Source of the DNA: Acidicapsa acidisoli
GTDB taxonomy: Bacteria > Acidobacteriota > Terriglobia > Terriglobales > Acidobacteriaceae
NCBI RefSeq assembly: GCF_025685625.1
Contig: NZ_JAGSYI010000001.1
Coordinates: 1,860,001-1,924,000 of the forward strand
DNA length: 64,000 bases
Direction of reading: 5' to 3'
Below are positions 30,821-34,442 of the stretch, piece by piece. Within the stretch, counting starts at the first letter, position 1. Each line of letters opens with the position of its first letter. The position numbers and the translations under genes were made by a program. The notes beneath the pieces are model-generated. The model was not told the origin of the DNA and did no database searches. It saw only the letters and a list, made by a program, of their open reading frames with translations.

Positions 30821-31936
30821 GTGAACATCAACTCCGACTGTTCCTTTATGTACGAATTCCCGGCGAAACACGTTCCCAAAGATCCTTTAAGTCCCACACC
30901 GGGCGACTTTTTGGTATCTTCAAGCGTCGAACCTGAGACGGCGGAAGGCGAGCCCAGCGTGTGGCTAAGACGAAATCGTGGTTTGTTCCACTTGCCCAAG
31001 GCTACGCTGATGGCGGCCTTGACCGTCTTTGTGTGCGCGGGCCAGCGTCCGATCTATGCGCAGTCCGCTCCCGCTACCCCAGCGCCGGGCGATGACTCCG
31101 CTCCCGTTCAGGCGCCGGCTACGCAGCAAACGCTCACACCGGCGCAAACTCCTGCGGCGACACCTCCGCCGCCAGGACCTACAGAGCAGTCCGGCCAGTC
31201 CGGCCTTCCGGATGCGCCAAAGCCTGCCACGCCCAAGACGGCTACGACCAAACCCGCAGCAACTGACCCGGCAAGCCAGTTCGCCGCGACTGTCTGCACA
31301 AAGCTGCCGTGTCCCACGCCGATCATCAACTGGTACATGCGCTTCGAAAATGGCCCGCAGGTGAAGCCGCTTACGCCGAAAGAGAAGGCGTGGCTGGCGA
31401 CCAAAAACCTGATCGACCCATTCAATATGCTTACCGTGCTGGGGGAGGCAGGTATCTCGGTTGCCGCGGATTCGCATTCGCCATACGGGCCGGGTTTTCC
31501 GGGTTGGGGGCGCAATGTCGGAGTTAGCTTTACGCAGGATATGACCGGAGAGTTTTTCCACACATTCCTGATTCCGTCCATCGTGCACCAAGACCCGCAC
31601 TACCATCGCATGCCAAAAGCCAGCTACCGTCGCCGCATCTTTCATGCCATCGACCAGATTGTGTGGACCCAGGGGGACAACGGCAAAGGCATGTTGAACT
31701 ATGCCGATCTGGTGGGCTTTGGGATCGACGATGAGATCAGTAATTTGTATGTTCCGGGTCGCGAGACGAACGGGAGTGCCACCGCGGAACGCTACGCGAT
31801 TGCCTTGGCTACCGCGCCCATCGACAATTTCATTACCGAGTTCCTGCCCGATGTGGCGCGCCATGTTCACGTGCAAGTCGTTATTATCCAGCGAGTCATT
31901 GATGAGGTAGCGACCAAGGACTCGGGTGGGTCCTGA
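30821..31936 (+). CDS. Exported protein of unknown function, acidobacterial type
   Basis: The frame codes for 371 residues from a GTG. The likely export signal is internal (PKATLMAALTVFVCAGQRPIYAQ, about residues 59-81), so the real start may be later, around 30959-31011. A proline/threonine-rich linker (about 83-150) follows. The C-terminal 220 residues are well ordered, with LTPKEKAWLATKNLIDPFN, a DSHSPYGPGFPGWGRN segment, FLIPSIVHQDPHYHR and ATAPIDNFITEFLPDVARHVHV. The conserved HQDPHYHR suggests a metal or membrane role, but no function can be named. A beta-barrel or periplasmic location is possible. Confidence 0.7.
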   Translation: MNINSDCSFMYEFPAKHVPKDPLSPTPGDFLVSSSVEPETAEGEPSVWLRRNRGLFHLPKATLMAALTVFVCAGQRPIYAQSAPATPAPGDDSAPVQAPATQQTLTPAQTPAATPPPPGPTEQSGQSGLPDAPKPATPKTATTKPAATDPASQFAATVCTKLPCPTPIINWYMRFENGPQVKPLTPKEKAWLATKNLIDPFNMLTVLGEAGISVAADSHSPYGPGFPGWGRNVGVSFTQDMTGEFFHTFLIPSIVHQDPHYHRMPKASYRRRIFHAIDQIVWTQGDNGKGMLNYADLVGFGIDDEISNLYVPGRETNGSATAERYAIALATAPIDNFITEFLPDVARHVHVQVVIIQRVIDEVATKDSGGS

Positions 31937-32222
31937 GAATCCAGACGGCGAACACCCGAAAATCAAGATGCAATCCCTGCGAAACGGAACCCCGTTCGCC
32001 GACCGCTTCGACCGCTTACCCCTGAGAAATTGCCATTCACTGTCGTTTCATTGGGTTGCGGCTGCCCGGGAAGTAGCATAGACATGGCTCATCAGATTCC
32101 GTAACCCGGTTACCACCGGCATTCGGAATGCCGCCTATTCAACGAATTCCTACGTGAATTTCGATAGAACTAATACAGGGATCAGGTCATCCAACAGATT
32201 TGAGACCAAGGAGATAGCGCCG

Positions 32223-34316
32223 ATGTCGAAAGCGGTCAAATACGCCGAGAAAGCAGTCGTCTACGCAGCCAAGGGCACATGGGCGGTATTCGAGCGCCTC
32301 AACAGCATCAATCCCAACGAGTCCATTACGCCTAAGTGGAGCGACAAGCCGCTGCTCAAGAGCTGGCAGAAGGAAAAGCCGCCTCTCGGATGGCCTCGCA
32401 GCACGGATTCTCTCTGTCCCAAGTGCGTTCCCGAGATTCGCCAGCAGATTCTTGACGGCAAGCTTCCGCATGAAGTCCTGCTGAATGAGAAGGTTGGCGA
32501 GATCAAGGCGCAGATCGTCGAGCGTGACGGCCAGATCCTGATGGTCAAGGATTGCCCTAAGCACGGCCATTTTGAAGATCTGATGTCGATGGACACGGCT
32601 TTCTTCCGGCACCTCGAAGAGACCTTTCCGGGCCGCGACATCCGCGCCCACAATGACGAGAAGCTGCACAACCACGGGACGTCAACCGTTACCCATGGCC
32701 GCGGCTCGGTTCTGACCATCGATCTGACCAACCGTTGCAATATGATGTGCGATCCCTGCTTCATGGACGCGAACCAGGTCGGCTTTGTGCATGAGCTGAC
32801 GTGGGACGAGATCAAGACCATGCTGGACAACGCGATTACCATCAAGCCGCGTCGCCAGATGAGCGTGCAGTTCTCCGGTGGAGAGCCGACGTTGTCGCCT
32901 TACTTCCTTGATGCGGTAGCTTACTCGCGCAAGGTCGGTTACAACAGCGTTCAGGCTGCCTCGAATGGCATCGAGTTCGCGAAGAGCAAGGAACTCTGCC
33001 GTGCCGCTGCGGAAGCTGGCCTGCGCTACGTCTATCTCCAGTTTGACGGTATCGGCAACGCTGCCAACTCGCACCGCAAGGTCGGCAACCTGTTCGACGT
33101 CAAGTTGCAGGCGATCGCCAATCTGCATGAAGCCGGCGTGGATATCGTCCCGGTTACGACGATCATCAACGGCATCAACAACGAGCAGGTGGGCCGCATC
33201 GTCGAGTTCGCGCTCGACAATCCGAAGACCATCAGCTTCCTCAGCTTCCAGCCGGTTTCCTTCACAGGCCGCGACGAAGACATCAGCGACGACCGCCGAC
33301 AGGCGCAGCGTTATACGCTGAGCCATCTGGCGCATGACGTGAAGAACCAGACCGGCTTGGGCGAGCCAACCCGCGACTGGTTCCCGATCAGCTTCATGAG
33401 CACCTTCTCGGATTGGGCGGATAACGTCCACGGACCCAACAACGAGTGGGGTCAGCTTTCCTGCGGTTGCCACCCGAACTGCGGCATCGGCATGGCGCTG
33501 ATGATCGACAAGGAAACCAAAGAAGCTGTCCCGGTCACCGCGTTCCTCAATGCCGACCGGCTGGCTCGCGATGTGGCTAAGGTTAACGATGCGGCTCGCG
33601 GCAAGTTCCTGTCGATCCTCGGCATCAGCCTCGCGCTGCTGCGCAACTACGATCCCTTCAAGGCTCCGACCCACTTCAAAATCAGCGACATGATGAAGAA
33701 GATGGACAAGACCTTCGGCGCGACCGGCAAGGACTACGGCAGCGTCAAGGGCGATCGTACCGCACAGGACATCCAGAAGCGTCGTGCCGATCGGTGGAAC
33801 TTCCTGTTCATCGCAGGTATGTGGTTCCAGGATCTGTTCAACTACGACTTCCGCCGCACCGAGCAGTGCATCATTCCCTACGCCACGCAGGAAGGCGAGA
33901 TCAGCTTCTGCGCGTACAACACTGGCGTGGGCTGGCGCAACATCATCGAGAAGATGCACATGACCGCGACCCTCACCAAGTGGTACGAGGAGCACGGGCG
34001 TCATGAGATCTTCGCCGGCGGCAAGAAGGTGGGCATGGCGCACCAGGGCCACAAACTGCTTCTGAACCAGGAGCACGTGAACGCCGAAGCAAATCACACG
34101 CTGGACGATCTGGGCATTGCGAAGAACGCCCGCGAAGAGAAGCTTCGCGCCCGCGACGAAAAGATCAAGGCCGACGCAGAGAACGCCCGCATGGCAAAGC
34201 TCTATCGCGAGCATGTTCTCGGTGAAAAGCCAATCGAGGGCCTGATTCGCCTTGACGCAATCGCACCGGCAAAGCCGGTTGCTACGCGCACCGAAGAACC
34301 TGTCGCAGGCGACTAA
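32223..34316 (+). CDS. Radical SAM protein of the Tes/Mss (tetraether / membrane-spanning lipid synthase) type
   Basis: The 697-residue protein has a zinc-ribbon-like N-terminal module (CPKC at 65-68, KDCPKHGHF with C111), then the radical SAM cluster motif CNMMCDPC (C172, C176, C179) and SGGEPT at 218-223. Extra cysteines are C414, C416 and C420 in SCGCHPNCG, C549 in RTEQCIIPYAT and C563 in SFCAYN, fitting additional iron-sulfur clusters. This cysteine layout matches archaeal tetraether synthase and its bacterial relatives, which join lipid tails. In acidobacteria the fitting product is iso-diabolic acid. AAGGAGA precedes the ATG at 32223. A strong terminator follows. Confidence 0.82.
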   Translation: MSKAVKYAEKAVVYAAKGTWAVFERLNSINPNESITPKWSDKPLLKSWQKEKPPLGWPRSTDSLCPKCVPEIRQQILDGKLPHEVLLNEKVGEIKAQIVERDGQILMVKDCPKHGHFEDLMSMDTAFFRHLEETFPGRDIRAHNDEKLHNHGTSTVTHGRGSVLTIDLTNRCNMMCDPCFMDANQVGFVHELTWDEIKTMLDNAITIKPRRQMSVQFSGGEPTLSPYFLDAVAYSRKVGYNSVQAASNGIEFAKSKELCRAAAEAGLRYVYLQFDGIGNAANSHRKVGNLFDVKLQAIANLHEAGVDIVPVTTIINGINNEQVGRIVEFALDNPKTISFLSFQPVSFTGRDEDISDDRRQAQRYTLSHLAHDVKNQTGLGEPTRDWFPISFMSTFSDWADNVHGPNNEWGQLSCGCHPNCGIGMALMIDKETKEAVPVTAFLNADRLARDVAKVNDAARGKFLSILGISLALLRNYDPFKAPTHFKISDMMKKMDKTFGATGKDYGSVKGDRTAQDIQKRRADRWNFLFIAGMWFQDLFNYDFRRTEQCIIPYATQEGEISFCAYNTGVGWRNIIEKMHMTATLTKWYEEHGRHEIFAGGKKVGMAHQGHKLLLNQEHVNAEANHTLDDLGIAKNAREEKLRARDEKIKADAENARMAKLYREHVLGEKPIEGLIRLDAIAPAKPVATRTEEPVAGD

Positions 34317-34334
34317 CCTCAGTCAGCTACCAAT

Positions 34335-34364
34335 ACAGAAGCCGCCCTTTTGGGCGGCTTCTGT
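34335..34364 (+). terminator. Terminator after the radical SAM gene
   Basis: ACAGAAGCCGCC pairs with GGCGGCTTCTGT (12 bp) around a 6-base loop, 19 bases beyond the stop. The downstream gene converges, so it may act in both directions. Confidence 0.85.
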
Positions 34365-34442
34365 GCGTTTGGATTCAACCGCTTAAGCTTTAGATTTCCG
34401 ATGAAAGGCCTTGAAGTGGAATGCCCGTCGTGAGGCCGAGGC

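What the first reader, a model, noticed from the sequence alone, without database searches (positions are those of the whole stretch)
32223..34316. Tes/Mss-type radical SAM enzyme, candidate for membrane-spanning lipid synthesis
The cysteine layout (CPKC, CPKHG, CNMMCDPC, SCGCHPNCG, late RTEQC and SFCAYN) fits archaeal tetraether synthase and its bacterial relatives. Acidobacteria make iso-diabolic acid, which needs tail-to-tail joining of fatty acids. The gene stands alone with its own terminator and has a long charged helical C-terminal extension (about residues 630-670).
Basis: partly seen in the sequence, partly recalled or inferred. Interest (0 to 1): 0.65.

Follow-up and report, generated by a model that had tools for sequence, protein, structure and literature searches.

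The report
Acidobacterial enzyme joining membrane fatty-acid tails
This soil-bacterium gene most likely makes the enzyme that welds two fatty-acid tails end to end into a lipid spanning the whole membrane; it resembles the archaeal enzyme for the same chemistry but appears to lack one of its four metal sites, and the way it is distributed suggests a test of how bacteria make lipids used to reconstruct past climate.

Summary
In detail: a 697-aa radical SAM protein at 32223-34316 (+) with every listed motif. Its closest solved relative by far is archaeal tetraether synthase Tes (7TOL, 4e-60). It is not Tes proper: 323 bits against a 450 cut-off, in a clade of its own (SH-aLRT 100) beside Tes-like proteins. 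Across 143 clade rows the radical-SAM cluster, the presumed [Fe4S4]C ligands and the Met439/Tyr459 equivalents are invariant, and the rubredoxin-type site nearly so; the [Fe4S4]N cluster of Tes is missing and one Cys is added. Best reading: the enzyme that joins two iso-C15 acyl tails into iso-diabolic acid. Edaphobacter modestus DSM 18101 and E. aggregans DSM 19364 (30% and 26% iso-diabolic acid in print) carry it as the only gene found with the Tes model that has the whole ligand set. A second, patchy Acidobacteriota class (Tes proper, N cluster kept) co-occurs with DUF2229 (PlsA/Ger-type) genes; this clade does not. Zeng 2022 already named the E. aggregans homologue as a candidate, so novelty is modest. 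Not done: comparison with characterised Mss (no sequence reachable), any assay, a usable structure model.

The parts
32223..34316 (+). CDS, 697-aa Tes/Mss-type radical SAM protein, candidate iso-diabolic acid (membrane-spanning lipid) synthase
32208..32213 (+). ribosome-binding-site-like AAGGAG
   Evidence: sequence printed
32223..32312 (+). N-terminal helix, residues 1-30, absent from Tes-like proteins; membrane role guessed only (hydrophobic moment not above shuffles)
32415..32564 (+). rubredoxin-type site: C65, C68, C111, H114
   Evidence: Pfam PF23545; Tes ligands from PMC9433317
32667..32675 (+). H149-x-H151 where Tes has its [Fe4S4]N ligands: the N cluster is lost, both His invariant in 143 of 143 rows
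32736..32759 (+). radical SAM cluster C172, C176, C179 (CxxxCxxC)
33462..33482 (+). C414 (clade-specific), C416, and C420 (aligned with Tes C338, presumed [Fe4S4]C ligand)
33819..33821 (+). M533, aligned with Tes Met439, the labile ligand of [Fe4S4]C
   Evidence: PMC9433317
33867..33911 (+). C549, Y553, C563, aligned with Tes C455, Tyr459, C470
34074..34313 (+). charged C-terminal extension, residues 618-697, lineage-specific
34334..34365 (+). hairpin, likely transcription terminator with weak U-tract

Best explanation
The protein is the tail-coupling enzyme of ester-bound membrane-spanning lipids in this acidobacterium. It works like archaeal Tes: the radical SAM cluster cleaves SAM, the 5'-deoxyadenosyl radical takes a hydrogen from the terminal methyl of an iso-C15 acyl chain, the carbon radical is parked on a sulfur of the [Fe4S4]C cluster, a second SAM makes a second chain-end radical, and the two join to 13,16-dimethyl-octacosanedioic (iso-diabolic) acid held between two glycerols. 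The isopropyl end of an iso-fatty acid is the same as the end of a phytanyl chain, so the active site needs no new chemistry. It does this without the N-terminal [Fe4S4] cluster of Tes. Shown here: homology, ligand conservation and loss, clade, distribution. Inferred: that Cys 338/455/470 of Tes are the C-cluster ligands (from conservation), substrate, reaction and product.
For: 7TOL is the nearest solved protein, 4e-60, next 4e-06; with a profile of 23 relatives 2.9e-184, next 5.9e-15. Clade support 100. Radical SAM Cys, presumed C-cluster Cys and Met439/Tyr459 equivalents in 143 of 143 rows. In E. modestus DSM 18101 it is the only match to the Tes model at 1e-30; in E. aggregans DSM 19364 the only other match is a 389-aa copy without the C-cluster part; these two strains hold 30.4% and 26.4% iso-diabolic acid (PMC11354219 Table 1). 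In the window's genome the only other strong match, P0002, is nearer TrsS (305 bits, cut-off 490) and has A and D at two of the three C-cluster Cys and S at the third, with a Cys one place on. Present in 184 of 396 genomes of the phylum and 44 of 44 of the window's family in that draw; 152 of 180 in a wider family draw. No association with DUF2229 ether-type genes (37 of 184 against 52 of 212, p 0.33), as expected for an ester-lipid enzyme.
Against: No assay, and no lipid data for this organism. The E. aggregans copy was found by Zeng 2022 only as a 32% homologue of unproven activity. Below the Tes cut-off. The tree is a quick one with long-branch warnings. 28 of 180 family genomes, 12 of 132 good ones, lack a match at 1e-180. 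S. usitatus makes no iso-diabolic acid yet has Tes homologues (PMC10087280); whether one is of this clade is unknown. The characterised bacterial synthase is Mss, with which I could not compare it.
Confidence: 0.78

Rival explanations
1. It couples ether lipids: it is the brGDGT (tetraether) synthase, acting on iso-C15 diethers as Tes does, and iso-diabolic acid comes from another enzyme.
For: E. aggregans has the gene and makes some brGDGT (PMC13274423 introduction); the window's genome and E. aggregans share a two-gene DUF2229 pair at 87% identity.
Against: Only 2 of 15 named genomes with the gene have DUF2229; the gene shows no association with DUF2229 over 396 genomes, while Tes-like proteins do (27 of 38 against 62 of 358, p 2e-11, no correction for ancestry). 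E. modestus has 30% iso-diabolic acid and no other Tes-model match.
Confidence: 0.1
2. A radical SAM enzyme of the Tes/HMPTM/TrsS superfamily with another substrate (pterin, peptide, selenium or another lipid change such as a mid-chain cross-link).
For: Pfam calls the N-terminal ribbon HMPTM; TrsS model 208 bits; the superfamily changes function: Acidicapsa dinghuensis has a second copy that lost the presumed C-cluster Cys (S, S, A; Tyr to Thr).
Against: Both models below their cut-offs, Tes far ahead of TrsS (323 and 208 bits); presumed C-cluster ligands and Met439 kept in 143 of 143 rows; the methylase role of MJ0619 could not be confirmed by the authors of the structure (PMC9433317).
Confidence: 0.1

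Closest known systems
Tes / GDGT-MAS, MJ0619 of Methanocaldococcus jannaschii (PDB 7TOL, 7TOM; PMC9433317)
   Same: Fold by sequence over residues 93-588; rubredoxin-type, radical SAM and presumed [Fe4S4]C ligands, Met439, Tyr459, Gln268, Arg275
   Different: No [Fe4S4]N cluster (0 of 42 keep its four ligands); extra C414; N-terminal helix and an insertion after CPKC; bacterial ester lipids as presumed substrate
Tes homologue of Edaphobacter aggregans named by Zeng et al. 2022 (PMC8941075)
   Same: Very probably the orthologue: E. aggregans DSM 19364 protein in L045 is 84% identical; Zeng give 32% to archaeal Tes
   Different: No function shown for either
Mss, membrane-spanning lipid synthase of Bacillota (Sahonero-Canavesi et al. 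2022, paper not held; described in PMC13274423 and PMC11868695)
   Same: Same proposed reaction; said to share Tes architecture
   Different: Unknown: no sequence could be compared
Tes-like proteins of Acidobacteriota over the NCBIfam cut-off (38 of 396 genomes)
   Same: Same superfamily; 29-36% identical to this protein in the 12 of A2
   Different: Keep the N cluster (34 of 34), shorter, associated with DUF2229 genes

Membership tests
Tes (NCBIfam NF045702, equivalog) | score at or above 450 bits | tested here: not met
   323.4 bits
Tes | CxxxCxxC radical SAM cluster | tested here: met
   C172, C176, C179; 143 of 143 rows
Tes | rubredoxin-type site C9, C12, C33, H36 | tested here: met
   C65, C68 141 of 143; C111, H114 143 of 143
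Tes | [Fe4S4]N ligands C73, C77, C80 and His | tested here: not met
   0 of 42 clade rows, 34 of 34 Tes-like rows; no Cys in that stretch in 141 of 143 rows, one Cys in 2
Tes | [Fe4S4]C Cys and labile Met439 | tested here: met
   C420, C549, C563, M533 in 143 of 143; the three Cys numbers are inferred from conservation, the paper passages seen name only Met439
Mss | clusters with characterised Mss of Bacillota | not testable with these tools
   no Mss sequence reachable; searches failed
Mss | couples acyl tails to (iso-)diabolic acid | not testable with these tools
   genotype-phenotype match in two Edaphobacter strains only
TrsS (NF045646) | score at or above 490 bits | tested here: not met
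   207.6 bits

The most novel reading that the evidence does not exclude
[quoted passage not shown] These would be the two routes that Halamka et al. proposed from lipids alone. Losing the surface [Fe4S4]N cluster, and gaining C414, may be how the first enzyme lives with oxygen or uses another electron donor.
Probability: 0.35. Interest if true: 0.7.

Novelty: new member of a known kind. Interest (0 to 1): 0.47.

Why it matters
Iso-diabolic acid is a main membrane component of many soil Acidobacteria and the presumed building block of brGDGTs, the lipids behind soil and lake palaeothermometers. If this clade makes it, the gene tells who can make it, and the split between the two gene classes makes the open question (iso-diabolic acid first, or diether first?) testable by knock-outs in cultivable strains. 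A coupling enzyme without the N cluster would also show which parts of Tes the sp3-sp3 coupling really needs.

Tried and rejected
Structure: one AlphaFold job on 46 near-identical sequences gave pLDDT 48.8, not used for a fold search. Membrane-anchoring amphipathic N-terminal helix: moment not above shuffles (28% reach it). Conserved operon partner: none; best were a lytic transglycolase-type gene on the opposite strand (26 of 117 loci) and an upstream orphan (24 of 117). Phage carriage: 64 viral loci, best segments 20-33% identical and partial, none of this clade. Plasmids: 30 records, all under 60% identity, none covering 80%. Promoter scan: none found, 0.8 expected. Pterin methylase reading: rejected by the Tes structure paper. 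Reaching characterised Mss: failed. Finding S. usitatus: not recognisable, so open.

Full report
Observation. The ATG at 32223 is preceded by AAGGAG and homologues start near there. Pfam finds a Radical_SAM domain and an HMPTM-type zinc ribbon.

What it is related to. Among solved structures the nearest is 7TOL, archaeal tetraether synthase, E 4e-60 over residues 93-588, the next 4e-06; with a profile of 23 relatives 2.9e-184, the next 5.9e-15. Of the NCBIfam models the best is Tes, 323 bits, under its cut-off of 450; TrsS gets 208 of 490. So it is a relative, not a member, of Tes as NCBI draws it.

Clade. A quick maximum-likelihood tree of 79 proteins (42 of this kind plus P0001, 34 Acidobacteriota proteins over the Tes cut-off, MJ0619, and the window genome's own paralogue) puts the 43 in one clade, SH-aLRT 100, on a long stem (1.6), with the Tes-like rows around it. 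The program warns of long branches, including the join of four Tes-like rows to this clade, so the exact sister group is unsure. Rows came only from Acidobacteriota and MJ0619; no Mss is in the tree.

Metal sites. Tes has a rubredoxin-type iron (C9, C12, C33, H36), an N-terminal cluster (C73, C77, C80, His), the radical SAM cluster and a C-terminal cluster with the labile ligand Met439 (PMC9433317, passages and two parts of the text). In an alignment of 42 clade members and 34 Tes-like ones, the clade keeps the first, third and fourth site and none of the four N-cluster ligands, while all 34 Tes-like keep them. Enlarged to 143 rows (142 distinct proteins, the window's being in twice with two starts; 1 partial dropped), C111, H114, the radical SAM cysteines, C414, C416, C420, M533, C549, Y553, C563, H149 and H151 are invariant, C65 and C68 are present in 141 with gaps in 2, and the stretch where the N cluster should be has no Cys in 141 and one in 2. 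C414 is nearly private to the clade (4 of 34 Tes-like). That C338, C455 and C470 of Tes are the C-cluster ligands is my inference from conservation; the passages I saw name only Met439. The Tyr459 mutants of Tes stay active, so its conservation proves little.

Other candidates in the genome. At E 1e-3 the Tes model finds five places besides this gene and its copy of coordinates: two rows of one 487-aa paralogue and three weak radical SAM matches of 33-68 bits. The paralogue P0002 is nearer TrsS; it keeps the N cluster but has A and D at two of the presumed C-cluster positions and S at the third, with a Cys at the next position. So this gene is the only one found with the complete set.

Distribution. 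At E 1e-180: 184 of 396 phylum genomes, 160 of 338 good ones, 101 of 211 genera, 44 of 44 of the window's family in that draw; in a wider family draw 152 of 180, 120 of 132 good ones. The named-genome scan kept the best 80 of 579 relatives at 77-92% identity, a capped list; 78 titles are Acidobacteria, 2 are Rhodanobacteraceae MAGs, probably misbinned. Absence elsewhere was not shown.

Lipids. Edaphobacter modestus DSM 18101 and E. aggregans DSM 19364 contain 30.4% and 26.4% iso-diabolic acid (PMC11354219, Table 1 in a passage). Fifteen named genomes were chosen because they carry the gene, so its presence there (15 of 15) is no test; the test is what else they carry: none has a protein over the Tes cut-off, and at 1e-30 E. 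modestus has one match, this gene, and E. aggregans two, this gene and a 389-aa copy lacking the C-cluster part. Relatives such as Occallatibacter have 27-49% (PMC12935467, passages) and Chloracidobacterium has it too (PMC12816986, passages), but I did not link those genomes by name.

Two systems. Tes-like proteins over the cut-off occur in 38 of 396 genomes. DUF2229, which as I recall is a domain of PlsA and Ger, is in 89 of 396. Tes-like and DUF2229 go together, 27 of 38 against 62 of 358, Fisher p 1.6e-11; this clade does not, 37 of 184 against 52 of 212, p 0.33; ancestry is not corrected for. In 2 of 20 Tes-like regions fetched, some cut short by contig ends, a DUF2229-type gene lies next to it, same strand, 78 and 251 nt apart. 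Fourteen genomes have both this clade and Tes-like; in 3 the two lie 248 nt, 3.4 kb and 5.7 kb apart on one strand, the other 11 were not examined for distance; one more neighbouring pair shows in G626. S. usitatus makes brGDGTs and diethers but no iso-diabolic acid, and two routes were proposed for that reason (PMC10087280, passages). The two gene classes may be the two routes; that is inference.

Ether potential of this organism. The window's genome has a two-gene pair (590 and 1235 aa, the second with two BcrAD_BadFG stretches and DUF2229; the first without a Pfam or NCBIfam match) at G000:C2 about 380955-386697. Among the 15 named genomes only E. aggregans DSM 19364 and E. lichenicola M8UP30 have it, as the same pair at 86-88% identity. 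E. aggregans Wbg-1 (the same strain as DSM 19364, recalled) is one of two SD1/3 strains reported with iso-diabolic glycerol ether and brGDGT (PMC13274423 introduction). Against this, PMC11354219 saw no such ethers in its cultures.

Prior knowledge. Zeng 2022 (passages) already list the E. aggregans homologue and propose a role in membrane-spanning lipids; Mss is the confirmed bacterial enzyme (PMC11868695, PMC13274423, passages), its paper not being held. I found no statement of the missing N cluster in the searches, which cover open-licence papers only and of which I saw listings.

Verdict. A well-supported candidate iso-diabolic acid synthase, ordinary in that its orthologue is in print as a candidate, interesting in its missing cluster and in the two-class pattern.

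Noticed in passing
G000:C2 about 380955-386697 (L191): Two-gene pair with DUF2229/BcrAD domains, 86-88% identical to pairs in E. aggregans DSM 19364 and E. lichenicola M8UP30 and absent from 13 of 15 named relatives; candidate ether-forming module.
   Followed up: partly
L280:4739-6625 (-), Acidicapsa dinghuensis: Second, diverged copy of this clade (41% identical) that kept the radical SAM cluster but has S, S, A at the presumed C-cluster cysteines and T for the Tyr: probably a changed function.
   Followed up: partly
L279:4036-5202 (+), E. aggregans: A 389-aa relative that ends before the C-cluster part; a methyltransferase-like stretch follows in another frame.
   Followed up: no
L282, L283 (G203, G330): Tes-like gene directly beside a DUF2229-type gene, same strand, 251 and 78 nt apart: possible brGDGT gene pair.
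   Followed up: partly
G000:C1:335.8-337.2 kb (L002): TrsS-like paralogue next to a lipoprotein-diacylglyceryl-transferase-like gene (name from reading the sequence) and an ArsR-type methyltransferase-like gene.
   Followed up: no
window 30821-31936 (+): Orphan protein upstream with no Pfam match, found on the same strand upstream in relatives of 24 of 117 loci.
   Followed up: no
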